This document shows positions 61 to 44,915 of a DNA stretch of 51,670 nt, in pieces. The DNA comes from Clostridia bacterium. GTDB taxonomy: Bacteria; Bacillota; Clostridia; Oscillospirales; Acutalibacteraceae. How positions within the stretch are numbered: position 1 is the stretch's first letter; each line of letters begins with the position of its first letter. Location of the stretch: the NCBI GenBank assembly GCA_017516315.1, contig JAFXDE010000032.1, positions 1 through 51,670 of the forward strand. The letters run 5' to 3'. A program made the translations under genes and the position numbers. The notes under the pieces are model-generated. The model saw only the letters and a list, made by a program, of their open reading frames with translations, ran no database searches and had not been told where the DNA came from.

Positions 61-96
61 TATAAAAGGGCAGTTTTGCTTGCTACAAAACTGCCC
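61..96 (-). terminator. intrinsic terminator of the ZTP riboswitch
   Basis: On the minus strand an 11-bp stem, GGGCAGTTTTG (86-96 side) with CAAAACTGCCC (68-78), has a 7-nt loop and is followed by TTTTATA. Its 5' arm overlaps the conserved CTGGGCA 3' end of the aptamer. Ligand-stabilised folding would therefore compete with the terminator, as in transcriptional ON-switches of this class. Confidence 0.85.
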
Positions 97-170
97 AGAC
101 GGTCGGCTTTTTATTCCCGCGCTCCCTATAGGTCAAGCCCTATAAATCCGTCAGTCACCCGGGAAGTTTT
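90..170 (-). ncRNA. ZTP (pfl motif) riboswitch aptamer
   Basis: Read on the minus strand, the segment carries the pfl/ZTP landmarks in order. These are GGGTGACTGACGG near the 5' end, a hairpin built on CTATAGG, the core GGGAGCGCGGGAAT, and a 3' CCGTCTGGGCAG that would form the pseudoknot. A terminator hairpin follows directly and then a start codon. The class senses ZMP/ZTP, a signal of 10-formyl-tetrahydrofolate shortage. The call is by recalled consensus; a covariance-model scan would settle it. Confidence 0.83.
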
Positions 171-3051: not shown

Positions 3052-3080
3052 CATAAAAAAATAAAATATTTCAATTAAAG

Positions 3081-3240
3081 ATAGAGGCGCGGTTTATCAT
3101 CAGTAGCTTTATTTCAAAGGGAATTTCGCACATTCCTTTAAAGTGAAAGGGGTCGCCGCCGAAGGAGTCAGGCGAAAGACATCCTGGGCAAAGGGAATAA
3201 TATCTCTTTGACTGTCGCTTATGCGGAGTGCTATTATAAT
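3081..3240 (+). ncRNA. lysine riboswitch (L-box)
   Basis: The leader carries the L-box landmarks in order: AGAGGCGCGG, AGTAGC, GTGAAAGGGG, CGCCGAAGG, CTGGGCAAAGGG, and TGACTGTCGC near the 3' end, with a long helix between. It precedes dapA and is followed by an intrinsic terminator. This fits lysine-dependent premature termination of diaminopimelate/lysine synthesis genes. Confidence 0.93.
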
Positions 3241-3278
3241 TGTGTTTTACGGCTTGCAGTCGTATATTATCGATTTTA

Positions 3279-26502: not shown

Positions 26503-27369
26503 TCAAAAAATCAAAAGCTCATTTCTGTCCGTGTCACACTCTCGCATATCTACTTTTTCAATTTTATAACTGTCACATCTGTTATAATAATAAATTCCCT
26601 TATCCGCATTGCAGCAGGAGGTGTATCTCGTATAGTGAGCCTTACCGTTTTTTGTTACACAGCCTTCGGGTACACTTACCAAAGACAGCATACGAAAAAG
26701 CTGGCTCACTCTTTCCTCCTCGCTTTTTTTAGCAGAGGCTTTTTCCTTAAGATAAGCGGCACGGATAAATCTTGCCTCGGAAGAAAAATCACCGGGTAAG
26801 GGCTCTTTGAAAAGTAAAAACCTTTCCGTATTAATCAGATGGTAATCAAAGGGAGGATTATTAGCCAGAACACCCCACGGATTACTGTAGATTTTAAGGC
26901 CTTCCTTTGTGCTTTCGAGGGTGAGGGAGCCGTATCTGTCTGAAATTATCCAATGGAGAGGGGAGAGGGGAAGCTCGTCGCTGAAGGGAATGTTGACTAA
27001 ATTAAGCTTCTTCGTTAGCTCTTTCGCTTCTTTTGTATCGGCACAGCTTCCTAAAATCCACGGGATAAGCTCGAAGGGTGTCACATTGTCTTTGTTCGGA
27101 GAGTAATCCTTAAAAAAGGCGTTTCCGGGAAAATTCAGACCTGCCACGGAAAGTCCCTTTTCATTGGTGGCGTCGAAATAAAGGGGATAACCCTTTGATA
27201 TTACCGCCATTCCTATTACGGCGTAATGCTCGGTAAGGTCAGGCATACATCTCATAGGAAATTGAAAATTCCTCGGCATAACCGTTACCTTTTCTCCGTA
27301 GGTAATATCAAGGTCGAGATTTCTTCCGAAATAGAAATCTCCGCTTGTGTAAGAAATTGCCGTACACAT
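26503..27369 (-). CDS. choloylglycine hydrolase family protein (bile salt hydrolase/penicillin V acylase type)
   Basis: A 289-residue Ntn-hydrolase. Starting at ATG 27369, the protein begins MCTAISY, so Cys2 becomes the N-terminal nucleophile after Met removal. FGRNLDLD supplies the conserved Arg and Asp, NEKGLSVAGLNFPG and NPWGVLANNPPF the Asn residues, and ARFIRAAYL the late Arg. Family members deconjugate bile salts or cleave penicillin V and N-acyl homoserine lactones. In a gut organism bile salt hydrolysis is plausible, but sequence alone does not separate the two groups. It is cytoplasmic, with GGCGGTGA upstream of the start. Confidence 0.88.
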   Translation of the reverse strand: MCTAISYTSGDFYFGRNLDLDITYGEKVTVMPRNFQFPMRCMPDLTEHYAVIGMAVISKGYPLYFDATNEKGLSVAGLNFPGNAFFKDYSPNKDNVTPFELIPWILGSCADTKEAKELTKKLNLVNIPFSDELPLSPLHWIISDRYGSLTLESTKEGLKIYSNPWGVLANNPPFDYHLINTERFLLFKEPLPGDFSSEARFIRAAYLKEKASAKKSEEERVSQLFRMLSLVSVPEGCVTKNGKAHYTRYTSCCNADKGIYYYNRCDSYKIEKVDMRECDTDRNELLIF

Positions 27370-27454
27370 AAAATCACCGCCTGTCATTTTGAATAGCTTT
27401 CCACATATACTGCCTTAAATACCTTTAAGGATGAAAATGACAGCAGTCATTACA

Positions 27455-27502: not shown

Positions 27503-28609
27503 TTATTTAATTATGCTTCTGACTACTCTTTCGGTGTTTTCGGTATCGGTAAAGCTGAAATTCATTTCTCTGAATTTTCTGTTTCTTTCTTCGCAGAAGG
27601 GAGCCTTTATCGCTTCGGCTAATTCCTCGAAAGTCTTGCATACCTTACCGGGAACAAGGGAGTCATAATCGAAATAGAAGTCTCTTTTTTCTCTGTACCA
27701 CTCAAGGTCGGGACAGTAGAAAACAGTCTTTTTGCCGAGAACACAGAAATCCATACAGATAGAGGAGTAGTCTGTTATAAGTATATCTGAAGCTAAAACC
27801 AGCTCTCTGACATCCCCGTAATCGGTTACATCTGAAGCAAATTCAAAGTCAGCAGAGGCTGTATGCACCTGAGGGTGAAGACGGACGAAAAGGAAATACT
27901 CCTCGCCCAGTTCTCTGAGGAGCTTTTCATCGCTGAAGGAATCGAGAAGCCTACTGTCTCTTTCGCTGTCATCTCTGAAGGTGGGAGCATAGAGGACTAT
28001 TTTTTTTCCCTTGGCTTCGGGGTAAAGGGAGATGATTTTTTCCCTGGCTGCAGCTTCGTTTTCCTTGTTCAGAAGGTAGTCGATTCTCGGTGAACCGAGA
28101 GGAAGAACCTTATCCTCACTTACACCGAAGGCCTCGGCATAAATCTTTTTAACATCTGAGGAGGAACAGACTACATAGGTAAGCTTACCGTTGGCAGCGA
28201 TTTCTCTTTTTCTCAAAGCCTCGGGCTGAGGTATGTGAAGTCCGAACTTTTTAAAAGCGCCTTCACCGTGCCAAAGCTGTGTGATAACCGTTTCCTTACG
28301 GAAATTAAGCTTTCCCATAGGCATAAAGTTATCGTTAAGAAAAACATATTTACTCGTAGCTAAAAGACGGGGCTTCAAAAGGAAGAAGCTCAATACCTTT
28401 AAAGGCTTTTTCAAAGATAAATCCTCACGGGTAATGAGAACGAAATCGTAGCTGTTTTCCTTTTTCAGATATTCATAAACACAGCCTAAGGAATCCTTGA
28501 AATTTTCATTGTGCATAGAAATGAAGGCTATACGGTTTTCTCTGATTCCGAAAAGTGCGGCACTGATATTGAAAAAAAGGGCATAAAGATTATAAAGAAG
28601 CTTTTTCAT
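27503..28609 (-). CDS. CDP-glycerol glycerophosphotransferase family protein
   Basis: A 368-residue TagB/TagF-like enzyme of the family that adds glycerol- or ribitol-phosphate from CDP-alcohols to teichoic acid chains. Family segments are ITQLWHGEGAFKKFG (base histidine), VCSSSDVKKIYAEAFGV, LPLGSPRIDYL, VLYAPTFRDD, VRLHPQ, and DILITDYSSICMDFCVL near the C-terminus (nucleotide-alcohol site). The N-terminal hydrophobic stretch suggests membrane association. It follows the second glycosyltransferase with a 1-nt gap, so translation is likely coupled. The product is probably a phosphate-containing surface polymer. Confidence 0.88.
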   Translation of the reverse strand: MKKLLYNLYALFFNISAALFGIRENRIAFISMHNENFKDSLGCVYEYLKKENSYDFVLITREDLSLKKPLKVLSFFLLKPRLLATSKYVFLNDNFMPMGKLNFRKETVITQLWHGEGAFKKFGLHIPQPEALRKREIAANGKLTYVVCSSSDVKKIYAEAFGVSEDKVLPLGSPRIDYLLNKENEAAAREKIISLYPEAKGKKIVLYAPTFRDDSERDSRLLDSFSDEKLLRELGEEYFLFVRLHPQVHTASADFEFASDVTDYGDVRELVLASDILITDYSSICMDFCVLGKKTVFYCPDLEWYREKRDFYFDYDSLVPGKVCKTFEELAEAIKAPFCEERNRKFREMNFSFTDTENTERVVRSIIK

Positions 28610-28610
28610 C

Positions 28611-29384
28611 TCAGAACTTAATACCCCATTTCAGGAAGTATTTCAGAATTGACTGAATATGAATAAGCAGGAGCTTTTTGTTTGTCTTGCTTTCTCTTTC
28701 CCAAAGATGATAAACCGTAGCCATAGGATAGTGCAGTGCCTTGTATTTTTCTGCCACTCTTCTTGCGATATCGCAGTCCTCCAGATACATAAAGAATCTC
28801 TCGTCGAAGCCGCCGATTTCTCTGAAAATCTCTGTGCGGAAAAACATAAAGCAGCCTGTAGCGTTGGTTATGGGGAAAGGCTCGTCCTCGGGCATATCCA
28901 GCATACAGTATTCGGTCATAAGTCTTCCTGCCGGCTTACTTTTGTTATATAAACGGTGAGCGCCCAAGTATCTTATTGTGGGATTTTTCATTCCTAAAAG
29001 CTGCTTTGTGCCGTCCTCGAAGCGTACTTCGGGCGAAAGAAGACCGATGCTGTTATCTTCGTCAGCATAACGGCAAAGCTCGGAAATAACATCCTCCCTC
29101 AGAATAATATCAGGATTTATAACCACATGGTATTTCGAGGTGAGGAAGGGTAAAATTTTGTTATGTCCCGCACCGAAGCCATCGTTGCTTTTTGGCTCGA
29201 CAACTACTACATCAGGAAAGTTTTTTCTGATGTAATCAGCTGTTCCGTCGGTGGAAGCGTTATCAACGATGTAAAGAGTAAAGGGTACACCCTTGGTGTT
29301 TTCGAGTACCGAGGTAATAGTGGCTGAAATCTTATTTTTGCTGTTATAAGTAACGATACAGCCGCTTACGGTGTAATTTTCCAT
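28611..29384 (-). CDS. glycosyltransferase family 2 (rhamnosyltransferase-like)
   Basis: A 257-residue GT-A fold transferase. CIVTYNSKNKISATI starts the nucleotide-binding region, IVDNASTDGTADYI and INPDIIL carry the metal-binding acidic residues (here NPD in place of DxD), and GGFDERFFMYLEDCDIARR is the late acceptor-side signature. These features resemble WbbL/rhamnosyltransferase-type enzymes. No membrane helices are seen. It lies between another family 2 transferase (12 nt) and the CDP-glycerol-transferase-like gene. Confidence 0.88.
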   Translation of the reverse strand: MENYTVSGCIVTYNSKNKISATITSVLENTKGVPFTLYIVDNASTDGTADYIRKNFPDVVVVEPKSNDGFGAGHNKILPFLTSKYHVVINPDIILREDVISELCRYADEDNSIGLLSPEVRFEDGTKQLLGMKNPTIRYLGAHRLYNKSKPAGRLMTEYCMLDMPEDEPFPITNATGCFMFFRTEIFREIGGFDERFFMYLEDCDIARRVAEKYKALHYPMATVYHLWERESKTNKKLLLIHIQSILKYFLKWGIKF

Positions 29385-29396
29385 TTCTCTTTCTCC

Positions 29397-30098
29397 TTAT
29401 CTCTTAAGAATTACTCTTTTGTAAAGCTTGAAAATGAGATACCTTCTCCATTCTATTTTCTGTCTGAAGGTGGTTTCTCCTCCCGTAACATTACCGCCGT
29501 GTACACGGTAGTAGATAAGAGGCAGATCCAAAAATTTGACCTTGCCGTAAATTTCGGCGAGAATACCTATCCATTGGTCGTGCATGGGAATACTGCGAGG
29601 CATAGGCATAATTTTTTTTAAAAGCTTACGGTCGAAGGCCATACAGCAGCCCATATATGAATTTTTAAAGATATTACGGAGAACTCCCTTTTTGCTTCCT
29701 CTCTTTTCGAAGAAGGAATAATCGGTGATGTTCAGGTCTCCGTCGGTGATGTAGGCATTATGCAGAACCAGGTCATATCCCTCATCAAAGGCCTCCATAA
29801 CTCTTTTTACCTTGTCGGGAAGCCACACATCGTCCTGGTCGCAGAGAAAGATTTTATCGCCCTTGCAGTAGCGTATGGCATTTACGAAGTTTGAAACCAC
29901 ACCCTTGCTTTTTCCTTCGACCCAAACGACACGGCTGTCCTCTAAGGCTATTCTTTTTACTATTTTTTCCGTCATACCTCCCGGCCTGTCGTCGGATACG
30001 ATTATTTCATCACCGTGGGAAAGCTGAGGAAGAATTGAACGGATTTGCGCTTCGATATATTTTTCACCCTTGTAAGCAGCGAGTGCAACGGAAATCAT
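29397..30098 (-). CDS. glycosyltransferase family 2
   Basis: A 233-residue GT2 enzyme. ISVALAAYKGEKYIEAQI begins the nucleotide-sugar domain; IIVSDDRPGG, FLCDQDDVWLPDKV (with the DxD-type metal site) and MPRSIPMHDQWIG follow. This pattern is common in rhamnan and teichoic acid side-chain transferases. GGAGG precedes the ATG at 30098. It is first in a three-gene minus-strand operon with its own promoter, presumably building a cell-surface polysaccharide. Confidence 0.87.
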   Translation of the reverse strand: MISVALAAYKGEKYIEAQIRSILPQLSHGDEIIVSDDRPGGMTEKIVKRIALEDSRVVWVEGKSKGVVSNFVNAIRYCKGDKIFLCDQDDVWLPDKVKRVMEAFDEGYDLVLHNAYITDGDLNITDYSFFEKRGSKKGVLRNIFKNSYMGCCMAFDRKLLKKIMPMPRSIPMHDQWIGILAEIYGKVKFLDLPLIYYRVHGGNVTGGETTFRQKIEWRRYLIFKLYKRVILKR

Positions 30099-32963: not shown

Positions 32964-33059
32964 ATAATCAATCCGTTTCAAAAGCTTTCTTTTTCACTAT
33001 GATTTCACATAAAGGATTATAATATTCACAGAAAATGCCGTTATTTGTTGTTTTTTCTA

Positions 33060-33088
33060 TTGAATAAAAATTTCGCTTATGGTAAAAT
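33060..33088 (+). promoter_or_regulatory. promoter of the MBOAT-ACP-DASS-ligase-SGNH operon
   Basis: TTGAAT (33060-33065), a 17-nt spacer and TAAAAT (33083-33088) lie about 47 nt before the first gene. All five genes follow with gaps of at most 23 nt or overlaps, so one transcript is likely. Confidence 0.75.
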
Positions 33089-33134
33089 TATTTGAATTTT
33101 GTAAATATCTGTAAAAAGAAAGAGAGCGTGTAAA

Positions 33135-34712
33135 GTGAGTTATCAGTCAGCGTCTTTTATGATTTTTACAGCAGTATCGTTATTGCTGTTTTATGTAGTT
33201 CCGAGGCATAAGCAGAAGTATGTGCTTCTTTCGGCCAACATCCTTTTCTATTGCTTTTCGGGACTGAAGTATCTGCCCTTTATTGCCGTTACCCTTCTCG
33301 CTACATTTTTTGCGGGAAAGGCTATGGGTGCTGTATACGAAAAAGAAAAGGAGCTTCTTAAGCTTTGTCAGACTCCTGCCGAAAAGAAAGAGGTAAGAGC
33401 CGGCTGCAAGAAAAAAGCACGGGGTATTCTTATCATCGGTCTGGCAGTTTCCATAGCACTTCTTGTCGTATGTAAGTATACGGGCTTTATACTCACTAAT
33501 GTGAATTCGCTTATGAGCCGTTTCGGCTTAGGCGAGATAACTGTTTTTAAAATGATACTGCCTTTAGGTATTTCATTTTATACCTTTATGGCTATCAGCT
33601 ATGTTCTCGATATTTACTGGAAAAGATACAGCGCAGAGAAATCTCTTCTGAATTATGCTCTTTTCCTTACCTATTTCCCTCATGTCGTTCAGGGACCTAT
33701 CGACCGTTATAATAAAATCAAGGCACAGATGCCCGAAGAAGGAATTTCCTTTGATTCTGTCGCTGTTTCAAAGGGCGCACAGCTCGCATTGTGGGGTCTT
33801 TTCAAAAAGCTGGTAATAGCTGACAGACTCGGTATTTTCGTCAATGAGATTTACGGCAATTACACAGAGTATGAGGGTCTTATAATAATTATCGCCACTG
33901 TCCTTTATTCCGTGCAGATTTATGCTGATTTTTCGGGCTGCATAGACATCGTTTCGGGCGTTTCGGAGATGTTCGGCATAAAGCTGGCCAAAAACTTCGA
34001 CCATCCCTATTTCTCGAAAACTATGCCTGAATTCTGGAGAAGATGGCATATTTCATTGGGCGAATGGTTCAAGGATTATATCTTCTATCCCGTTTCCGTA
34101 AGCAAGCTTGTAAAAAAGGTTAAAAAGAATCCTAAATCGAAAAAAGCAGGTGAAATGTTTGCTTCCTGCTTCCCTGCCTTTGTCGTATGGGTGATTACGG
34201 GTATATGGCACGGAGCCTCCTGGGGCTTTGTAGCCTGGGGTATGTTCCATGCGGCGCTTATTATTTCGGGTACGGTATTCGCTGACTTTAACAGTGCTTT
34301 AAACAGTCGTCTCAGAATTGATACGGAGAGCTTCAGCTGGAAGCTATGGCAGATGACCCGTACCTTTATTCTTTGCTGTATCGGCAGAGTATTCTTTATT
34401 ACAAACGGTCTTTCCGAGGCTTTCGCGATTTTCGCAAGAGCTTTCAGCGGACTTCACTTCGAGTACATAGCAGAGGATGCCCTTTATGACTACGGTCTCG
34501 ATAAGGATAATTTCTTCTTTGCTCTCTTCACGATTTTTGTTCTCTGGGCTGTTGATATGCTTCAGGAGAGAATGAAAATCCGCGAAGCACTCGAAAAGCA
34601 GAACATTATATTCAGATGGACTGTTATTTTTCTCGGCATATTTGCTGTAATCATTTTCGGCATCTACGGACCCGGATTTGATCAGAGCAGCTTTATATAT
34701 GAACAATTCTGA
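33135..34712 (+). CDS. MBOAT-family O-acyltransferase (DltB/AlgI-like)
   Basis: A 525-residue polytopic membrane acyltransferase with 10-12 hydrophobic helices. The diagnostic regions are PLGISFYTFMAISYVLDIYW, YFPHVVQGPIDRY, MPEFWRRWHISLGEWFKDYI, and FVVWVITGIWHGASWGF with the invariant histidine at residue 359. DltB moves D-alanine from its carrier protein through the membrane to teichoic acid; AlgI and PatA acetylate exopolysaccharide or peptidoglycan. Start GTG 33135 follows an AGAGAG site. An acyl carrier protein gene follows 23 nt later, which favours a DltB-like donor chain. Confidence 0.92.
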   Translation: MSYQSASFMIFTAVSLLLFYVVPRHKQKYVLLSANILFYCFSGLKYLPFIAVTLLATFFAGKAMGAVYEKEKELLKLCQTPAEKKEVRAGCKKKARGILIIGLAVSIALLVVCKYTGFILTNVNSLMSRFGLGEITVFKMILPLGISFYTFMAISYVLDIYWKRYSAEKSLLNYALFLTYFPHVVQGPIDRYNKIKAQMPEEGISFDSVAVSKGAQLALWGLFKKLVIADRLGIFVNEIYGNYTEYEGLIIIIATVLYSVQIYADFSGCIDIVSGVSEMFGIKLAKNFDHPYFSKTMPEFWRRWHISLGEWFKDYIFYPVSVSKLVKKVKKNPKSKKAGEMFASCFPAFVVWVITGIWHGASWGFVAWGMFHAALIISGTVFADFNSALNSRLRIDTESFSWKLWQMTRTFILCCIGRVFFITNGLSEAFAIFARAFSGLHFEYIAEDALYDYGLDKDNFFFALFTIFVLWAVDMLQERMKIREALEKQNIIFRWTVIFLGIFAVIIFGIYGPGFDQSSFIYEQF

Positions 34713-34735
34713 TTTTAGAAAAGGAGTCAAAAACA

Positions 34736-34957
34736 ATGGATGAGCTTTTAAAGGTATTAAAGGAAGTATACCCCGATGTGGATTTCGCTAGTGAGGACAA
34801 CCTCATTGATGACGGTATTATCGATTCAGTAGGAATGGTAAAGATTATTTCTGTTATCGAGGACCGCTTTGATATTTCCGTTACAATGGAATACATTCAG
34901 CCTTCATATTTTCAGTCTGCTGAAACTATGTGGGAAATGATTGAGGAGTTGATGTAA
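34736..34957 (+). CDS. acyl carrier protein (DltC-like)
   Basis: A 73-residue acidic carrier protein. Ser31 in IDDGIIDSVGMV is the expected 4'-phosphopantetheine attachment site. The D-S-x-G context resembles DltC more than fatty-acid ACP (DSLD). It should accept the acyl group from the ligase two genes downstream and hand it to the MBOAT protein. AAAAGGAG is 11 nt upstream of the start. It is separated from the transporter gene by only 2 nt, which suggests coupled translation. Confidence 0.9.
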   Translation: MDELLKVLKEVYPDVDFASEDNLIDDGIIDSVGMVKIISVIEDRFDISVTMEYIQPSYFQSAETMWEMIEELM

Positions 34958-34959
34958 TA

Positions 34960-36384
34960 ATGAAAAAGAACAGAAGGATTATATCTATTCTGCTCGGCCC
35001 GGTTTTATTTTTATTCTGTTATTTTTTGCTTCCTGCTGATGTGTTTACTACCGCAGCCGCAAGAGGCTCTGTAGGTATGGTTCTATGGATGGCGCTCTGG
35101 TGGGTTACAGGTCCCGTCGACTATGCCGTGACGGCATTTCTGCCCATAGCGGTAAATGCTGTATTTAATTTCGTGGATATGTCCGCGGTTATTTCGAACT
35201 ATTCATCTGAGACTATTATGCTGCTTCTCGGTGCTTCTATTCTCGTTGTTTCCTGGGAGGTAACAGGTCTTGACAGAAGAATCGCAGCTAAATGTCTTTC
35301 TCTTGTAGGAGGCAAGCTCAGTACACAGCTTATTTTCTGGTTTATTCTTACCACAGCTCTTTCGTCTGTGCTTCCTAATGCCGTAGTATGCGCTACGATT
35401 ACACCTATCGCCGTTTCGATGCTAAAATTTATCGGCGAAGAGGATATCGGTGAAAGCAAGAACGGATCTCTTATTCTTCTTACCATCGCTTACGGTGCAG
35501 GTGTGGGCGGACTTGCCACACCCTTGGGCGGTGCGATGAATCTCGTTACCGTAGAATACATCGAGGAGCTTACGGGTAAGGAATTTATGTACACCTCATG
35601 GGTTATACGCTTCCTTCCCGTTATGCTCGTTCTCGTAGTAAGCAATGTCATCTATCTCATAGTAAGACACTGTAAAAAGGGTGATCGTCTTGCAGGCTCG
35701 AAGGAATACTTCGTTTCTGTTTATAAGGAAATGCCGAAGATGACTAAAGAGGAGATTATTTCCTTCCTTCTCTTCGTTATCGCTACCGTGCTTTCCTTTA
35801 CCCGTCAGTTTTACCAGGATTTACTTCCCGGTCTCAAGCCTGCCTATGTATTTATTGTCTGCGCTGTTCTTTCCTTCTTTATTAAAAAGGAGGACGGTGA
35901 AAGACTGCTTAAATGGAAGAATACTCAGGGCAAGATTCTCTGGGAGCTTATTTACATCTTTGCGGGCGGTCTTGCCCTCGGCACGCTGATTAATAAGAGT
36001 GGCGCTGCAGACGATATCGGTGCTCTCGTTTCGTCTATGAATCTCGACGGAGGATTTATTACTGTGCTTATTATAGTTGCAGTAACTCTTCTTCTTTCTG
36101 ATGTTACGAGTAATACCGCTACAGCCGCTGTGGCTATCCCCATAGTAATCAGTATCGTAAACGGTATGGGAAAAGATCCGATTCCTTATGTTTATATCGC
36201 TTCCATCGGTGTTAATCTTTCCTATATGCTTCCCACCTCTATCCGTGCCATTCCCGTCGGCTACGGACTCAAGCCCAAGTTTATGCTTAAAGAGGGTATA
36301 GGTATGACTGTTATCGTCATCGCCCTTATGAGTATTACAGGCTACCTGCTTCTTACCTACTGGCCTGCTTTCAGCACTACCTGA
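34960..36384 (+). CDS. DASS-family (SLC13-type) anion:sodium symporter
   Basis: A 474-residue membrane protein with about twelve helices, of the divalent anion:Na+ symporter family, which imports dicarboxylates, citrate or sulfate. Two related re-entrant motifs are seen: LPNAVVCATITPIAVSM (about 130-146; Asn-Ala where Ser-Asn-Thr is usual) and DVTSNTATAAVAIPIVIS (about 383-400). GGLATPLGGAMNLVTVE (about 184-200) is also typical. The altered first motif may mark a different substrate. It sits between the ACP and ligase genes, so I infer it brings in the acid that is activated next. The substrate is not known. Confidence 0.87.
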   Translation: MKKNRRIISILLGPVLFLFCYFLLPADVFTTAAARGSVGMVLWMALWWVTGPVDYAVTAFLPIAVNAVFNFVDMSAVISNYSSETIMLLLGASILVVSWEVTGLDRRIAAKCLSLVGGKLSTQLIFWFILTTALSSVLPNAVVCATITPIAVSMLKFIGEEDIGESKNGSLILLTIAYGAGVGGLATPLGGAMNLVTVEYIEELTGKEFMYTSWVIRFLPVMLVLVVSNVIYLIVRHCKKGDRLAGSKEYFVSVYKEMPKMTKEEIISFLLFVIATVLSFTRQFYQDLLPGLKPAYVFIVCAVLSFFIKKEDGERLLKWKNTQGKILWELIYIFAGGLALGTLINKSGAADDIGALVSSMNLDGGFITVLIIVAVTLLLSDVTSNTATAAVAIPIVISIVNGMGKDPIPYVYIASIGVNLSYMLPTSIRAIPVGYGLKPKFMLKEGIGMTVIVIALMSITGYLLLTYWPAFSTT

Positions 36385-36400
36385 TTCGGAGGAATTTAAA

Positions 36401-37870
36401 ATGTACAGTTCAGTTGTTCAGGCGGTGTTCTCTCACGCCGAAACGAAAAAAGATAAAATCTGTCTCGCTGATGAAAAGGGACAGGTAACCTACGGCGAGT
36501 ATAAGAGTCTTATTCTCCGTTATGCATCGGAGCTTGCTTCCCTCGGTGTAAAAAGAGGGGACAAGGTTGTAATTGAGGCATCTCAGTCAATCAGCTTTCT
36601 TGCCGCAGCTCTGGCCGTTCAGCTTATGGGAGGTGTATTCGTTCCTGTAGAGCGTAACTGTGCCTGGGATAAAACTCTGAGAATAGCCCTGGCTGCCGAA
36701 GCTGTTCTCGTTATTCCTCTGAGAAATAAGGAAGCCGGAGCCGTAAAGCATATTTCGCTTTCCGATTTCGATGAAAATGCCTTGGAAAAACCGGAGCTTG
36801 CTTTCTATGAATTTTCCGACGAGGATACAGTCTGTGAGCTTCTTTTCAGTACGGGCACTACCGGTAAGGAGAAGGGCATCAGCATCACTAACGGCAATAA
36901 TATCGCTCTGGCAGAAAATGTAATGTACGGTGTCGAAATGGAAGAGGATAATGTGGAAATGATACCCTCTCCTCTTAACCATTCCCACGGTCTGAGAAGA
37001 TACTATGCCAATATGGTAAAGGGCGCAACGGTGGTTCTCGTTACGGGCGTTATGAATGTCATCGGATTTTTCGCTATGATGGATAAATACGGCGTAAATT
37101 CTATGGATCTTGTGCCTACGGCTCTTACGGTTCTGCTTAAGCTTTCTAAGAATAAATTTGCTGACTATAAGGATGTTATGCGTTACATTCAGTTCGGCTC
37201 TGCGCCTCTTTCTGACGGAGATAAGGAAATAATCCGTACTCTTCTTCCGAAGACACATCTTTATAATTTCTACGGAAGCACAGAAAGCGGATGTATCTGC
37301 ATATACGATTTTAATGACGGCAAGGATAAGCCTAAATGTATCGGCAAGCCTGCATATAACGCTAAAATCGTTATCGTAGACGAGGAGCGTAATGAAATCG
37401 TTGCTACGGAAGGTAATACGGGACTTCTCGCTTCCTTCGGTAAAATGAATATGAAAGGCTATTGGAAGGATGAGGAGGAGACAGCCAAGGTAATGCTTGA
37501 CGGCGGTATCTACTCAAACGATGAGGCTTATTTCGACGAAGACGGAGATATTATCCTTCTGGGCAGAAAGGGCGATGTAATAAATGTAGGAGGAAATAAG
37601 GTGTCTCCCGATGAAATCGAAGATGCGGCGAAAAAGCTGGAGGGAGTAGAGGACTGCGGATGTATCGGTATTTCCGATCCCTTAAGCGGTAACACACCTA
37701 AGCTTTTTGTGCAGATGAAAAAAGGCAGTGCCTTCGATTCTGTGGCTATAAGAGCCTTCCTCGCTTCGGAGCTTGAGCCTTACAAGGTTCCTTCGGTTAT
37801 CGAGGAAATCGACCTCATTCCCCGTTCATTTAACGGCAAATTACTCAGAAGAACTTTAAGGAATAAATAA
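36401..37870 (+). CDS. AMP-forming acyl ligase (ANL superfamily, DltA-like role)
   Basis: A 489-residue adenylating enzyme. Core motifs: LLFSTGTTGKEKGI (P-loop, about 147-160), YNFYGSTESG (about 289-298), DEAYFDEDGDIILLGRKGDVINVGGNKVSP with the hinge Asp and Arg, and a C-terminal catalytic Lys in NGKLLRRTL. It differs from typical D-alanine ligase DltA at the substrate segment (NHSHGLRRYYANMVKG). It resembles carboxylic-acid/benzoate-type ligases, so the acyl group may not be D-alanine. It should load the neighbouring carrier protein. GGAGG precedes the start; the stop overlaps the next start by 1 nt (TAATG). Confidence 0.88.
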   Translation: MYSSVVQAVFSHAETKKDKICLADEKGQVTYGEYKSLILRYASELASLGVKRGDKVVIEASQSISFLAAALAVQLMGGVFVPVERNCAWDKTLRIALAAEAVLVIPLRNKEAGAVKHISLSDFDENALEKPELAFYEFSDEDTVCELLFSTGTTGKEKGISITNGNNIALAENVMYGVEMEEDNVEMIPSPLNHSHGLRRYYANMVKGATVVLVTGVMNVIGFFAMMDKYGVNSMDLVPTALTVLLKLSKNKFADYKDVMRYIQFGSAPLSDGDKEIIRTLLPKTHLYNFYGSTESGCICIYDFNDGKDKPKCIGKPAYNAKIVIVDEERNEIVATEGNTGLLASFGKMNMKGYWKDEEETAKVMLDGGIYSNDEAYFDEDGDIILLGRKGDVINVGGNKVSPDEIEDAAKKLEGVEDCGCIGISDPLSGNTPKLFVQMKKGSAFDSVAIRAFLASELEPYKVPSVIEEIDLIPRSFNGKLLRRTLRNK

Positions 37871-38952
37871 TGAAAAATAAGATTATTAAGGCTGTTGCCT
37901 TTCTGCTCATTTTCTGTACCTGCTTTTTTCAGGTGCAGGGTGTGCTGACGGGTAATGAAGACAGCCGTGACAACAGAAGAATAACGGGATTTTTCGAGGA
38001 GAGAGACAGTTCTCTTGATGCTGTGTTTGTAGGCTCGAGTACGACCTATGCTTTTTGGTCTGCTCCCTATGCCTGGTATGAGCACGGTCTGGCTGTTTAT
38101 TCCCTTTCGAGCATAATGCAGCCGATTCAGGCGGCGAGATTTCTTATCGACGATGCAAAAAAGAGACATCCCGACGCTGTTTTTATCGTCAATATAACCT
38201 CAGTGCATCCTGAGGGAAGCAAGCATTCCGAGTACGATCTGCGCTTCCTGCACGGCATATTTGATAACTATCCTCTCACTCTGAATAAGTATAAAATGAT
38301 GGATTATCTCTGTGACCTCGGCGGACACGGTATCAAGGAGCGAATGGAGCTTATCTTCCCGATTATAAAATACCACAGCCGATGGAATGAGCTTACAGCC
38401 TTCGACTTCGATAAAAAGCCTGACAGCTATAAGACAGGTAATACCTACGGCTCGTTTCTTAAAAATACTGAGGATGTCACCGGCGGTATCAAGGATTTCA
38501 CCTTAAGAAGTGACCTTGAAGAGGGCCTTTATCAAAGCATGGTAGAGCTTATGGATTACTGCGAAAAGGAAAAAATTAAAGTGCTTTTCGTGGTTTCACC
38601 TCAGTCTCTTGACAATAAAGAGAGAATAGGTATGCAGAATACTCTGGTGGAAATGCTTGAGGAGAGAAGCTTTGATGTCCTCGATTTCCGAAAGCTTGAC
38701 AAAGAAGCAGGTATAGATTACCGTACAGACTTTTACGATACGGAGCATACAAATATTCACGGAGCCATTAAATTCACAAACTACATTTCTCTTTATCTCA
38801 AGGAAAAATACGGTCTCGAGAATAAAAGAGAGGATGAGAACTATTCCGATTGGGAAAAGGCGTCTGTGAGCTATTTCGAAAAGATCGCAAAGCATCTGAA
38901 TGAAAATGATATGAAATATTTCACCGACCGCATTGAAATCCCTGAGAAATAA
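37870..38952 (+). CDS. membrane-anchored SGNH-type protein (DltD-like)
   Basis: A 360-residue protein with an N-terminal signal anchor (IIKAVAFLLIFCTCFFQV) and an extracellular SGNH-fold domain. The nucleophile is in VFVGSSTTYAFW (Ser56 or Ser57), and the Asp-His pair is D290 and H293 in YDTEHTNIHG. It has the layout of DltD, which works outside the membrane in the D-alanylation pathway, although overall sequence similarity to DltD looks low. It closes the operon before a bidirectional terminator. I infer it is the extracellular transfer or thioesterase/esterase step. Confidence 0.85.
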   Translation: MKNKIIKAVAFLLIFCTCFFQVQGVLTGNEDSRDNRRITGFFEERDSSLDAVFVGSSTTYAFWSAPYAWYEHGLAVYSLSSIMQPIQAARFLIDDAKKRHPDAVFIVNITSVHPEGSKHSEYDLRFLHGIFDNYPLTLNKYKMMDYLCDLGGHGIKERMELIFPIIKYHSRWNELTAFDFDKKPDSYKTGNTYGSFLKNTEDVTGGIKDFTLRSDLEEGLYQSMVELMDYCEKEKIKVLFVVSPQSLDNKERIGMQNTLVEMLEERSFDVLDFRKLDKEAGIDYRTDFYDTEHTNIHGAIKFTNYISLYLKEKYGLENKREDENYSDWEKASVSYFEKIAKHLNENDMKYFTDRIEIPEK

Positions 38953-41357: not shown

Positions 41358-44300
41358 ATGAAGAAAATCAAAGGCATGTTTGCTGTAATAATTACAGCGT
41401 TATGCGTTCTGTGCCTTTTCAGCTTCACCTCATCGGCAGCCGAGGGCGGGAAGTGGATCAAGGCGTGGAGTACCGCCGCTACCGAGGTAGCGCTGAATAA
41501 TTTCACGGGTGAAATACCTGAGGATATTATGAAAATCCTTAATCTTTTACCGAAGGATGTACGGGAGGAGCTTTTAAAGGAGCTTAACGGCCTTATCGGT
41601 TCAGAGCCTCTTATGAATGTAGCGATGAGAACGGTTATTACTCCTACTGCTTCCGGTGATGAAATCAGAATCAAATTTTCTAACTACTACGGTAAAGAGC
41701 CTCTGGTAATTGACCGTGCAAAGGTTGCTCTCAGCGACACAAGTGAAACTGCCTCGGGAATCGATCAGTTTTCTATGAAGCCGATTATTTTCTCCGGTGA
41801 TGACAAGGTAACTATCCCCGTAGGCGGAGAGGTTTATTCTGACCCTATTCCTTTAAAGGTGGTCGCCGGTGAGGATATAGCCATATCTCTTTACATAAAG
41901 GACTTTATGAAGATACGCACTATGGGTATCACGGGCGGCAGCACCTATATCAAGGTTGCAGGCTCCGATTCAAGCGGTTACGACCTTATAGAGTCAGCTA
42001 ATTTTAACCTTATTTATGATATTGAGGTTGACGAAGAAACGAAATGGCTGCATGCCGTTCTTGATTTTATGGCAGGCTTTCTTACCGGTACGGGCAGCCT
42101 CGATGTGCCTCTTTCAGGCGGAGAAATTTATGCTGTTCCCGTTATTACGGATGTGGAGGTTCTTAATCCCGACGATAAGGCTTATTCGGTAGTTGTTCTC
42201 GGTGATTCCACTGTAGCAAACAGCTATCCCGATTATCTTTCCGAGGTAATAGTCGAGCAGGGTAGAACGGATGTAGGTATTTCTGCTAAGGGACTCAGAG
42301 GAAATAAGCTTTTGAGCAAGGGACTTGGTTTTGATACTCTCGTTAACAGTGAGAGCATTCTTGACCGACTTAAAAGAGATACTGTCGGTCTCGACGGAAA
42401 AAATCAGGGAAATGTTAAGTATCTGATAGTAAAAGCCGGTGCGCACGATATCATATATCCTGTCTGCAGTAATGTTACAGGTGAAATTCAGCCTACGGCC
42501 GATGCGATTGTCGAGGGCTATAAAAAGATATTCAGCTTCTGCCATGAGAATAATATCAAGGTAATAGTAATCGGTATTACTCCCTGGGGCGGTTACGACG
42601 GCTCGACCTATCTCGGTATGGGGCCCGATTATAAGGACAGAACTAACGAGGCGCGAAAAAGGGACTGGCAGATAGCCGCCAATGTAAACAAATGGCTTTC
42701 CAATACCTCGCTTCATGACGGGTATGTGGATTATAACGAAATTTCAAAAAATCCTCTGGACTCCTCTGCGCTTCATCATAATTATACTACGGACGGACTC
42801 CTTCCGGCGGATAATCTTCAGAGAATCTGGGCGGAAAGCTTCCCTCTTGCTCTTATCGGCGTGGACAGCAATCCCAGAGCAGCAGGGGTAGGCATTTCCG
42901 ATTCTGAGCTCACTATTTATAAGGGCGATTTTAAAAAGCTTACTGCCAAGGTTATGCCCGAAAGCGTAAATCAGGCTGTGACATGGACTTCATCTGACCC
43001 GTCAGTGGTTGCTGTTGACTCTAAGGGTAACTTAAGCGCCAAGGCAAAGGGCGAGGCAGTCATTACCGTAAAGACTGTAGATAATGGCTATAGCGGTAAG
43101 GGCTATACTGCTTCCTGTAAGATAACAGTAAAGATAAAGCCCGAATCTGTCAGAATAAGCGGTAATGAAGCTGTTCTTTATACCACTAAATCTACTAAGC
43201 TTTCTGCTTCGGTTTATCCCTCAGACACAGATTTCAAGGGTATCATCTGGTCATCCTCAAACGAAAAGGCAGCCACTGTAGACCAAAACGGTCTCGTTAC
43301 TGCCACGGGAAAGGGTACGGCCGTAATCACTGCTAAATCTTCCTTTGACGGAAATATCAAGGCAACCTATACGGTAACAGTAAAGAAAAAGGTTCAGGTA
43401 CAGGCTATTTATCTTAATTATGACGAGAGAACACGATATGTAGGTACCTCCTTTACTCTCGTTCCGACGATGAATCCTTCTAATGCTACCTTCCCTGAGG
43501 TTACCTGGAAATCCTCAAACAGCAAGATAGCCAAGGTAGATAAAAACGGAAAGGTAACGGCGCTTAAGAAGGGTGTAGCGGTAATCACCTGTAAATCGGT
43601 GGATAATCCGGGCGTAAGTGCATCCTGTATCGTCGAGGTAAGAATAAAAACCACAGGTGTAAAGCTTCCTACCAAAAAGCTCACTCTTTATGTTTCACAG
43701 ACAAAAACACTCAAGGCAGAGATTTCTCCCTCAAATGCTTCAAATAAAAATGTAACCTGGTCCTCTTCGAATAAAAAGGTAGCTACCGTTTCAAAAAGCG
43801 GTAAAATAACGGCAAAGGCACCCGGTACCGCTACCATCACCGTAAAGACCAAAAACGGCGGATACAAGGCTACCTGTAAGCTTACAGTCAAAAAGTATGT
43901 CAAGCTTAAATCCTTCAGCCTTAATAAATCCTCAGTAAGCATTAACGACGGAAAGACCTACACCTTAAAGGTGACCTATTCCCCCTCAAATGCGTCAAAT
44001 AAAGATCTTGTCTGGAAGTCAAGCAATACTTCTGTAGCTACCGTATCCTCAAAGGGTGTAGTAAAGGGTGTAAAGCCGGGTACTGCCACTATTACCTGTA
44101 AAAGCAAGGAAACAGGTAAAACCGTAAAATGTACGGTTAAAATCAAAAAGGTAAAGGTTAAGCGTGTTCTTTTCTCTGAAAAAACATATACCGTAAAGCA
44201 TAACGGAAAGCTTCAGCTTAAGGCTCTTATTTCACCCACCAACGCCACTAATAAAAAGGTTAAGTGGAAATCAAGCCATCCCGAATATGTCAAGGTATCC

Positions 44301-44915
44301 TCGAGTGGTAAGGTTACGGGTCTCAAGCTCGGCAAAACAGTTACCATCACCGCTACATCTGTAGACGGAAAGAAGGTAGGCTACTGTAAGATAAAGGTAG
44401 AAAAGGTACCCGTCACCGGTCTTAAGCTTAATAAGACTACGGCAGCGGCATATACGGGAGGCACCGTAACCCTTACACCTAAATTCACTCCCTCGAAGCC
44501 TTCGAACAGCAAGGTTGTCTGGACTACCTCAGATTCCAAGCTGGCTACGGTTTCATCTGACGGTGTGGTAAAAGCTCTCAAGGCAGGCACGGTTACCGTT
44601 ACCTGTACAGCCGCCGACGGAGGCTATAGTGCTAAATGCACCGTGGTAATCGAGGAAGGAATCAAGGCTACGGGCATCAAGCTCGATAAAAAGAGTGTAG
44701 AAGCAAATGTAGACACAGCGTTTAATCTTATCGCTACCATCGAGCCCTCTAACGCAAGCAATAAAAAGGTAGTGTGGTCCTCCTCAAACACCTCTGTAGC
44801 TACGGTTTCCTCTAACGGAAGGGTAGTTACCCTTAAAGAGGGAGTCACATATATCAGAGCAAAGACTGAGGACGGCAGATATACAGCCTCCTGCAGAATC
44901 AATGTAGTTCCTTAA
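41358..44915 (+). CDS. secreted SGNH-domain protein with eight Big_2 repeats
   Basis: A 1185-residue exported protein. The signal peptide is at 1-28 (VIITALCVLCLFSFTSSAA). A beta domain typical of one GDSL-lipase group follows (WIKAWSTAATEV, IRIKFSNYYGKEPL). The SGNH core spans about 275-500, and eight bacterial Ig-like (Big_2) domains fill about 510-1185, each with a VTWxSSNxxVATV-like core. Block I GDST (Ser284) is intact. Block III reads AGAHD instead of GxND, and block V reads DGLLP instead of DGxHP, so the catalytic histidine seems lost. There is no LPxTG motif. It lies 46 nt after the carboxypeptidase-like gene and is probably co-transcribed with it. The role is likely adhesion or wall binding. 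Confidence 0.86.
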   Translation: MKKIKGMFAVIITALCVLCLFSFTSSAAEGGKWIKAWSTAATEVALNNFTGEIPEDIMKILNLLPKDVREELLKELNGLIGSEPLMNVAMRTVITPTASGDEIRIKFSNYYGKEPLVIDRAKVALSDTSETASGIDQFSMKPIIFSGDDKVTIPVGGEVYSDPIPLKVVAGEDIAISLYIKDFMKIRTMGITGGSTYIKVAGSDSSGYDLIESANFNLIYDIEVDEETKWLHAVLDFMAGFLTGTGSLDVPLSGGEIYAVPVITDVEVLNPDDKAYSVVVLGDSTVANSYPDYLSEVIVEQGRTDVGISAKGLRGNKLLSKGLGFDTLVNSESILDRLKRDTVGLDGKNQGNVKYLIVKAGAHDIIYPVCSNVTGEIQPTADAIVEGYKKIFSFCHENNIKVIVIGITPWGGYDGSTYLGMGPDYKDRTNEARKRDWQIAANVNKWLSNTSLHDGYVDYNEISKNPLDSSALHHNYTTDGLLPADNLQRIWAESFPLALIGVDSNPRAAGVGISDSELTIYKGDFKKLTAKVMPESVNQAVTWTSSDPSVVAVDSKGNLSAKAKGEAVITVKTVDNGYSGKGYTASCKITVKIKPESVRISGNEAVLYTTKSTKLSASVYPSDTDFKGIIWSSSNEKAATVDQNGLVTATGKGTAVITAKSSFDGNIKATYTVTVKKKVQVQAIYLNYDERTRYVGTSFTLVPTMNPSNATFPEVTWKSSNSKIAKVDKNGKVTALKKGVAVITCKSVDNPGVSASCIVEVRIKTTGVKLPTKKLTLYVSQTKTLKAEISPSNASNKNVTWSSSNKKVATVSKSGKITAKAPGTATITVKTKNGGYKATCKLTVKKYVKLKSFSLNKSSVSINDGKTYTLKVTYSPSNASNKDLVWKSSNTSVATVSSKGVVKGVKPGTATITCKSKETGKTVKCTVKIKKVKVKRVLFSEKTYTVKHNGKLQLKALISPTNATNKKVKWKSSHPEYVKVSSSGKVTGLKLGKTVTITATSVDGKKVGYCKIKVEKVPVTGLKLNKTTAAAYTGGTVTLTPKFTPSKPSNSKVVWTTSDSKLATVSSDGVVKALKAGTVTVTCTAADGGYSAKCTVVIEEGIKATGIKLDKKSVEANVDTAFNLIATIEPSNASNKKVVWSSSNTSVATVSSNGRVVTLKEGVTYIRAKTEDGRYTASCRINVVP

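What the first reader, a model, noticed from the sequence alone, without database searches (positions are those of the whole stretch)
33135..38952. dlt-like acylation operon with a built-in anion transporter
Five tightly packed genes encode an MBOAT acyltransferase, a DltC-like carrier (Ser31), a DASS/SLC13 symporter, an AMP-forming ligase and an SGNH/DltD-like protein. The known dlt pathway needs DltA, DltC, DltB and DltD but no importer. The transporter lies between carrier and ligase, and the ligase differs from DltA around its substrate segment. I infer that a carboxylate, perhaps a dicarboxylate, is taken up, adenylated, loaded on the carrier and attached to a surface polymer. That would be a surface modification other than D-alanylation, possibly adding negative rather than positive charge.
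Basis: partly seen in the sequence, partly recalled or inferred. Interest (0 to 1): 0.82.

Follow-up and report, generated by a model that had tools for sequence, protein, structure and literature searches.

The report
Acid-importing cell-surface acylation operon
A gut bacterium carries a compact gene set that probably takes an organic acid from its surroundings and attaches it to its own cell surface, a relative of a known wall-modifying pathway but with its own importer and a different acid.

Summary
The five genes are real: MBOAT, carrier with Ser31, DASS transporter, AMP-forming ligase and a putative SGNH protein. Gaps are 23, 2 and 16 bases, then a 1-base overlap. It is not a dlt operon: the ligase scores 106 bits against DltA (cut-off 560), the MBOAT 159 against DltB (cut-off 375). 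The MBOAT ends in FIYEQF, like the 'acyl shuttle' hexapeptide described for PatA. Published passages pair that fused motif with acyl-CoA donors, and carrier proteins with a separate DltX; this set combines carrier and fused motif.

The importer belongs. Six clusters carry DASS beside this ligase type, in three gene orders (one cluster a subset), and their DASS form one clade. None of 51 loci around related MBOATs has one, although 38 have ligase plus carrier. Exceptions: one relative (G398) has the ligase but no DASS in the cluster; another (L005) kept carrier-DASS-ligase but lost MBOAT and SGNH. TagF-like genes lie near the window operon and around the G398 cluster, suggesting a teichoic-like acceptor.

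Likely mechanism: a non-amino organic acid is imported, adenylated, loaded on the carrier and esterified to a surface polymer. The acid is unknown: a C4-dicarboxylate, or a sulfonated analogue such as 3-sulfopropionate.

The parts
33135..34712 (+). MBOAT acyltransferase, His305 and His359, C-terminal FIYEQF with Tyr522 (putative fused acyl shuttle)
   Evidence: His305, His359 and Tyr522 present in 60 of 60 aligned MBOATs (60 of 63 hits used)
34736..34957 (+). acyl carrier protein, Ser31 as phosphopantetheine site
   Evidence: Pfam PP-binding 22.4 bits; Ser31 in 49 of 49; NCBIfam dltC 23.6 bits, cut-off 52.35
34960..36384 (+). DASS/SLC13-type anion transporter; first motif PNA (139-141), second motif SNT (384-386), SIRAIPVGYG loop
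   Evidence: clade of six operon DASS 100/100
36401..37870 (+). AMP-forming acid ligase with NHSHGLRRY segment (193-201); Ser195 where amino-acid ligases have Asp
37870..38952 (+). SGNH-like protein in the DltD/PatB position; GSS 55-57, D287/D290, H293
   Evidence: no Pfam hit
32982..33134 (+). upstream region; a similar stretch lies directly before the carrier gene in L005
   Evidence: promoter-like matches in the operon region are not above shuffles
27503..30098 (-). TagF-like glycerophosphotransferase (27503-28609) and two GT2 glycosyltransferases: candidate source of the acceptor polymer
   Evidence: Glyphos_transf 272 bits; GT2; the three genes, 80-95% identical, also lie beside the L005/L040 cluster, as a block turned round relative to the operon

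Best explanation
A carrier-dependent surface acylation pathway with its own acid supply. DASS imports a small anionic organic acid that is not an alpha-amino acid (inferred). The ligase adenylates it and loads it on the carrier's phosphopantetheine arm (inferred from family). The MBOAT takes the acyl group from the carrier, passes it through the membrane onto Tyr522 of its own C-terminal hexapeptide, and the SGNH-like protein moves it by Ser57 to a hydroxyl of a surface polymer, most likely a glycerophosphate (teichoic-like) polymer (mechanism by analogy with PatA/PatB and Dlt; nothing was shown biochemically).
For: All five genes recur in four other clusters (L006 and L039 same order; L007 with SGNH first; L041 as MBOAT-SGNH-DASS-LIG-ACP), and three of them in a fifth (L005, ACP-DASS-LIG). 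Operon DASS are one clade, 100/100. DASS in 0 of 51 MBOAT loci, ligase plus carrier in 38 of 51. RR ligases form a group apart from 37 other MBOAT-cluster ligases, among them the DltA-like L073. Window ligase 106 bits against DltA, cut-off 559.85; no DltA over cut-off in 6 of 6 genomes. Ser195 stands where the amino-acid ligase aligned has Asp. Carrier Ser31 (49 of 49) and MBOAT His305, His359 and Tyr522 (60 of 60) are invariant. In L005, ACP, DASS and LIG have dN/dS 0.11, 0.04 and 0.09 against the window, and an MBOAT-SGNH pair without ligase or carrier 17.5 kb away falls among the DASS-linked MBOATs in a quick tree (branch support 94). TagF-like genes lie nearby here and around L071. Acyl-Tyr mechanism: PMC12148441, passages.
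Against: L071 (G398) has the ligase type without DASS in the cluster. L005 has no MBOAT or SGNH beside its ACP-DASS-LIG, so those three might serve something else. The set is rare: DASS at E<=1e-40 in 4 of 398 family genomes. SGNH is not recognised by Pfam. Arg/Lys at position 199 is common in the other ligases too (33 of 45 aligned: 11 R, 22 K); only Arg200 is special (6 of 45 aligned, plus the window), and that position is not, as far as I recall, among the ten classic pocket residues. The transport direction is unknown. The DASS association follows one ligase clade, so it is few independent events.
Confidence: 0.63

Rival explanations
1. Sub-reading: the acid is a sulfonated carboxylate, most plausibly 3-sulfopropionate (the sulfonate analogue of succinate), scavenged from plant-sulfolipid breakdown, so the surface gains sulfonate groups.
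For: Two relatives of this DASS sit in clusters that look organosulfonate-related: L042 beside a GH31 glucosidase (PRK10426, 932.5 bits, cut-off 553; that this model is YihQ is recalled), a DUF4867 protein, and a transaldolase-like and a sulfolactaldehyde-reductase-like gene (both below their cut-offs); and L047 (G398) beside DHPS dehydratase HpfG (1435.7 bits, cut-off 1000). G398 is also the one genome with an RR ligase and no DASS in the cluster; its ligase is sister to L041 (99/98), so the in-cluster DASS was probably lost. HpfG passes the cut-off in 1 of 99 class genomes, and that one is G398, which could make 3-sulfopropionyl-CoA itself (chemistry: PMC11489063, passages).
Against: One genome only, noticed after the fact. 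L042 and L047 DASS form a separate clade (100/99) with NST, not SNT, as second motif. The f180 DASS, at 47-50% identity, are closer, and no sulfonate gene was recognised near them (few of their neighbours were run against a family library). In the G398 cluster the aldehyde- and alcohol-dehydrogenase genes pass no listed NCBIfam cut-off, and the CoA step would be done by a transferase that passes as succinyl-CoA:acetate CoA-transferase (613.8, cut-off 500). In cow rumen the sulfonate product found was isethionate; DHPS and 3-sulfolactate were not detected (PMC13219744, passages).
Confidence: 0.15
2. Sub-reading: the acid is a C4-dicarboxylate such as succinate, giving succinyl esters on a surface polymer.
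For: DASS best matches VcINDY in the PDB by sequence (1.3e-29) and keeps the second SNT motif; DASS bind dicarboxylates through two SNT motifs (PMC7553777, passages). Succinyl substituents on a cell-envelope glycan are known (PMC10503756, search listing).
Against: The first SNT motif is PNA in all six operon DASS, so one carboxylate site is changed. Many cells can make succinate, so a dedicated importer is less expected.
Confidence: 0.35
3. ACP-DASS-LIG is an independent acyl-carrier module for another product, and the MBOAT and SGNH genes are neighbours by history.
For: L005 keeps only these three genes, with low dN/dS; gene order varies.
Against: MBOAT and SGNH accompany them in 5 of 6 DASS clusters (window, L006, L039, L007, L041), and L005 has a related MBOAT-SGNH pair on the same contig. 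The dN/dS is a weak argument either way: dS near 1 covers time before the loss.
Confidence: 0.12
4. It is ordinary D-alanylation with a transporter inserted by chance.
For: DltB, DltC and DltA models all match weakly.
Against: All far below cut-offs; no Asp at the amino-group position; DASS kept in six clusters.
Confidence: 0.03
5. DASS exports or exchanges an acid (for example clears hydrolysed acid) and does not supply the ligase.
For: Arg in the SIRA loop recalls DASS exchangers, which carry basic residues at the sodium sites (LaINDY, PMC7553777 passages); the positional match was not tested.
Against: G398, which might make its acid, lacks DASS in the cluster.
Confidence: 0.08

Closest known systems
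Dlt D-alanylation pathway (DltA-DltB-DltC-DltD, DltX)
   Same: Ligase, dedicated carrier, MBOAT with two His, extracytoplasmic partner protein; works by the same carrier-to-polymer logic.
   Different: Ligase far from DltA and without the Asp; fused C-terminal shuttle instead of DltX; built-in anion transporter.
PatA/PatB-type MBOAT-SGNH O-acetyltransferases
   Same: MBOAT with C-terminal aromatic hexapeptide carrying Tyr, SGNH-type partner (PMC12148441, passages).
   Different: PatA uses acetyl-CoA and, per that paper, such pathways lack a carrier protein; here ligase and carrier are present.
VcINDY/LaINDY DASS (SLC13) transporters
   Same: Family match over nearly the whole length, second SNT motif kept.
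   Different: First SNT is PNA; SIRAIPVGYG where VcINDY has a TPPN segment (alignment); below the TIGR00785 cut-off (160 against 198.6).
Ligase-carrier-MBOAT-SGNH operons of other Clostridia (this survey: 38 of 51 loci)
   Same: Same four-part plan; C-terminal Tyr hexapeptide in 51 of 51 MBOATs.
   Different: Other ligase pocket types; 12 of 51 carry a LysA-like PLP gene; none has DASS.

Membership tests
Dlt pathway | DltA equivalog ligase with Asp for the amino group | tested here: not met
   106.4 bits against cut-off 559.85; Ser195 aligned with Asp of an amino-acid ligase; the role of that Asp is recalled
Dlt pathway | DltB equivalog | tested here: not met
   TIGR04091 159.2 bits, cut-off 375
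Dlt pathway | DltC-type carrier | tested here: inconclusive
   TIGR01688 23.6 (cut-off 52.35), NF003464 30.8 (cut-off 68), NF058660 33.6 (cut-off 80): a carrier, but not classed
Dlt pathway | separate DltX microprotein | tested here: not met
   gaps between the five genes are 23, 2, 16 and -1 bases, no room in the cluster; the hexapeptide is on the MBOAT. The rest of the genome was not searched for DltX
Dlt pathway | DltD (PF04914) | tested here: not met
   no hit for the window protein; 12.2 bits (cut-off 22.7) for the L039 homologue only, 1 of 8 proteins
Dlt pathway | D-alanine on teichoic acid | not testable with these tools
   needs biochemistry
MBOAT-SGNH acyltransferase pair | MBOAT with the His pair and C-terminal aromatic hexapeptide with Tyr | tested here: met
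   60 of 60; FIYEQF; motif from PMC12148441
MBOAT-SGNH acyltransferase pair | SGNH partner | tested here: inconclusive
   motif conserved, no profile or credible PDB match
MBOAT-SGNH acyltransferase pair (non-Dlt) | no carrier protein, acyl-CoA donor | tested here: not met
   carrier and ligase in the operon
DASS/SLC13 | family profile | tested here: met
   PF00939 128 bits (cut-off 27), PF03600 156 bits (cut-off 31.9); but TIGR00785 160 is below its cut-off of 198.6
DASS/SLC13 dicarboxylate symporter | two SNT motifs | tested here: not met
   second present, first is PNA

The most novel reading that the evidence does not exclude
Rumen and gut Clostridia scavenge sulfonated acids from plant sulfolipid breakdown (3-sulfopropionate or a near relative) through this DASS and esterify them to teichoic-like surface polymers, giving a sulfonated cell wall: a dlt-like pathway run in the opposite charge direction and fed from the diet.
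Probability: 0.14. Interest if true: 0.88.

Novelty: new variant of a known kind. Interest (0 to 1): 0.62.

Why it matters
If right, it shows that the Dlt plan is a modular surface-acylation platform in which the ligase and an accessory gene set the acyl group, and that a bacterium can make its surface chemistry depend on an acid present in its surroundings. It also does not fit the published split between carrier-plus-DltX and acyl-CoA-plus-fused-motif systems, and gives a direct test set (ligase, carrier and 38 sister loci) for reading acyl specificity from sequence.

Tried and rejected
Ordinary dlt: rejected by model scores and pocket. Chance neighbourhood: rejected by recurrence in other clusters. 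Reading 'RR' as a clean anion-binding signature: weakened, since Arg/Lys at 199 is frequent elsewhere (33 of 45) and only Arg200 is particular. Sulfonate substrate as the main reading: kept as a rival only, because the sulfonate-context DASS are another clade with another second motif. Plasmid-borne relatives: 26 records, all under 60% identity, 27-29% in the 20 rows shown, no help. Sequence search of the SGNH-like protein against PDB and Pfam: nothing credible. Papers: searches showed, in titles and abstract openings of the rows listed, nothing describing a DASS gene in a dlt-like operon or a sulfopropionyl or succinyl teichoic acid. Those lists were often cut (20 of 32, 15 of 18, 15 of 32, 10 of 10, 10 of 6,531, 0 of 0, 8 of 77), and most subscription journals are not held.

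Rows dropped or limits: residue counts used 45 of 48 ligase, 57 of 61 SGNH, 60 of 63 MBOAT and 49 of 49 carrier hits (length and score filters). The ligase tree left out ligases shorter than 441 or longer than 619 residues, such as L076 and L109. One search printed 'no MBOAT' for L005. The MBOAT tree is a quick one, because the careful search had not finished. The ligase tree has long branches (L074, L097, own-genome rows) and the tool warned of possible false joins. In one search, of the 12 loci without a ligase, 5 had the MBOAT within 1.5 kb of an end of the fetched stretch, so some absences may be truncation. The annotation models were built from 6 to 9 sequences each, all from the clusters first found.
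Full report
WHAT IS THERE. The window lies in a 2.06 Mb, 82% complete genome; the closest named relatives found are MAGs of Clostridia labelled goat caecum and roe deer rectum. Five ORFs on the + strand are packed with gaps of 23, 2 and 16 bases and a final 1-base overlap. Families: MBOAT, PP-binding carrier, CitMHS/Na_sulph_symp, AMP-binding plus C-terminal domain; the fifth protein has none. The carrier serine is residue 31. The GC of the operon (0.433) matches the window (0.438), so composition gives no sign of recent import. Promoter-like hits are no more than in shuffles (12 against a mean of 12.2); terminator-like hits are somewhat more (11 against 5.5) but scattered inside genes.

IT IS NOT DLT. 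Against NCBIfam the MBOAT scores 159 for DltB (cut-off 375), the carrier 24 for DltC (cut-off 52), and the ligase's best family is a broad acyl-ligase subfamily at 258 (cut-off 476). The ligase scores 106 for DltA (cut-off 560), and no DltA passes its cut-off in any of the six genomes tested. In the HMMER alignment with gramicidin synthase, ligase Ser195 faces an Asp and Arg199 the residue four further on. That this Asp anchors the amino group is recalled knowledge; position 239 as a pocket position is stated in PMC3098103 (passages), and its match to Arg199 is my counting. So the substrate is probably not an alpha-amino acid (inference).

A HYBRID MECHANISM. The MBOAT ends in FIYEQF. PMC12148441 (passages) reports that PatA acylates the Tyr of such a fused hexapeptide, and says that the Dlt pathway uses a carrier and a separate DltX while other MBOAT/SGNH pathways lack a carrier. 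Here a carrier and a fused hexapeptide occur together, and so they do widely: both His and the Tyr are present in 60 of 60 aligned MBOATs, and the C-terminal pattern holds in 51 of 51 surveyed loci. This combination is therefore common in these Clostridia and not special to the window.

THE TRANSPORTER BELONGS TO IT. Homologous clusters: L006 and L039 (MBOAT-ACP-DASS-LIG-SGNH), L007 (SGNH-MBOAT-ACP-DASS-LIG, named Hungatella sp. UBA5385), L041 (MBOAT-SGNH-DASS-LIG-ACP), L005 (ACP-DASS-LIG); L008 is a contig fragment with part of LIG and an SGNH-like gene. With the window that is six DASS clusters. Their DASS form one clade at 100/100. Such DASS are rare: 4 of 398 family genomes at E<=1e-40, all four in these clusters; 8 of 391 class and 10 of 398 phylum genomes at E<=1e-60, the window's genome included each time. 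The 15 other genomes there have DASS 35-50% identical; none shows MBOAT, carrier or ligase relatives in the stretch fetched, several being cut by contig ends. For contrast I searched the MBOAT profile in 150 family and 148 class genomes and fetched 51 loci, covering all listed matches but those already held (two in G000, two in G138, one in G398). Within 4.5 kb of the MBOAT: ligase 39 of 51, carrier 41, SGNH 49, ligase plus carrier 38, DASS 0; no DASS hit lies anywhere in those stretches. The association is strong but follows one ligase clade, so it is few independent events.

LIGASE CLADES. The NHSxxxRR ligases (window, L005, L006, L039, L007, L041, L071) stand apart from 37 other MBOAT-cluster ligases; L074 is their neighbour. 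Of the 37, L073 was tested and is DltA-like (TIGR01734 305 bits, below cut-off). Arg at 199 and 200 together occurs in 7 of 46 aligned ligases (window included), all in this clade. Arg or Lys at 199 is common (33 of 45), while 200 is Asp or Glu in 37 of the 45 rows, 6 of the rest being the clade itself. None of the 7 own-genome ligases aligned has RR. A ligase of this kind is rare: profile A1 at E<=1e-90 finds 2 of 398 phylum genomes, the window's own and G398.

TWO TELLING EXCEPTIONS. (i) L005, from a genome with the same genes on both sides, lost MBOAT and SGNH cleanly: the upstream region now abuts the carrier gene. ACP, DASS and LIG have dN/dS 0.11, 0.04 and 0.09 against the window, though dS near 1 includes time before the loss. 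An MBOAT-SGNH pair without ligase or carrier in the six genes either side lies 17.5 kb away on that contig and falls among the DASS-linked MBOATs in a quick tree (support 94): a likely substitute partner. (ii) L071 (G398) has the RR ligase, carrier, MBOAT and SGNH among three TagF-like genes and a cytidylyltransferase-like gene, but no DASS there. Its ligase is sister to L041 (99/98), so loss of DASS from the cluster is the simpler history; its MBOAT, however, falls elsewhere in the quick MBOAT tree, so parts have been exchanged. G398 is the only one of 99 class genomes with a DHPS dehydratase HpfG over the cut-off, next to a distant DASS. That pathway can yield 3-sulfopropionyl-CoA and 3-sulfopropionate (PMC11489063, passages). 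A genome that can make the acid itself needs no importer: attractive, but one case, noticed afterwards.

WHICH ACID. For a dicarboxylate: DASS family, second SNT motif kept. For something other than a plain dicarboxylate: the first SNT is PNA in all six operon members, and an Arg lies in the SIRA loop. The sulfonate-linked relatives L042 and L047 share PN[AV] and the Arg but have NST in place of SNT and form their own clade. Rumen sulfoquinovose breakdown is documented, but there the sulfonate product found was isethionate, with DHPS and 3-sulfolactate not detected (PMC13219744, passages), which does not favour abundant C3 sulfonates. I leave the acid open, with dicarboxylate favoured.

ACCEPTOR. 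A TagF-like gene and two GT2 genes lie 3-6 kb upstream in the window; their homologues (80-95% identical) lie beside the L005/L040 cluster too, as a block turned round relative to the operon. L071 sits among three TagF-like genes, and L007 follows a glycosyltransferase gene. A glycerophosphate-type polymer is the best guess (inference).

VERDICT. A real, conserved variant of carrier-dependent surface acylation with its own anion transporter, not described in the papers seen (searches; listings and passages only). Shown: anatomy, conservation, distance from DltA, DASS association. Inferred: import, acid type, polymer, charge effect.

Noticed in passing
L073:6945-12334 (G224) and L078 (G003): DltA-like ligase (L073: TIGR01734 305 bits, below cut-off) with a GNAT acetyltransferase gene between ligase and carrier in an MBOAT-SGNH operon; may acetylate a carrier-bound amino acid.
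   Followed up: partly
L080, L086, L087, L092-L095, L099, L102-L104, L118: 12 of 51 surveyed MBOAT loci carry a LysA-like PLP enzyme, mostly between ligase and carrier: perhaps decarboxylation or racemisation as part of another acyl supply.
   Followed up: partly
L082, L101, L109-L114, L116, L119-L122: In 13 of 57 SGNH-like partners the putative catalytic serine is cysteine (GDCEV[YF]); in 12 of these 13 loci the ligase has a DA[CS][LM][KR]E pocket segment, the 13th (L120) having no ligase found.
   Followed up: partly
L076:6859-8892 (G043): A ligase (NHSYGMRV pocket) carries a C-terminal extension that looks, by eye, like a nitroreductase, in an SGNH-MBOAT-230aa-ACP-LIG cluster.
   Followed up: no
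window 3074-3241 (+) and 86-168 (-): Lysine riboswitch (77.9 bits) and ZTP riboswitch (52.4 bits).
   Followed up: no
window 41358-44915: 1185-aa protein with eight Big_2 stretches and, by eye, a GDSL-like N-terminal part, just after a D-Ala-D-Ala carboxypeptidase gene.
   Followed up: no
L007:9369-10876: IS21-type istB and a transposase piece beside the Hungatella cluster, hinting at mobility.
   Followed up: no
L047 (G398:C15): DASS gene inside an HpfG sulfopropanediol dehydratase cluster with a CoA-transferase and no HpfYZ recognised among the genes run; DASS as a sulfonate transporter would be new to me.
   Followed up: partly
window 26503-27387 (-): Choloylglycine hydrolase (bile salt hydrolase family) gene, 273 bits.
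   Followed up: no
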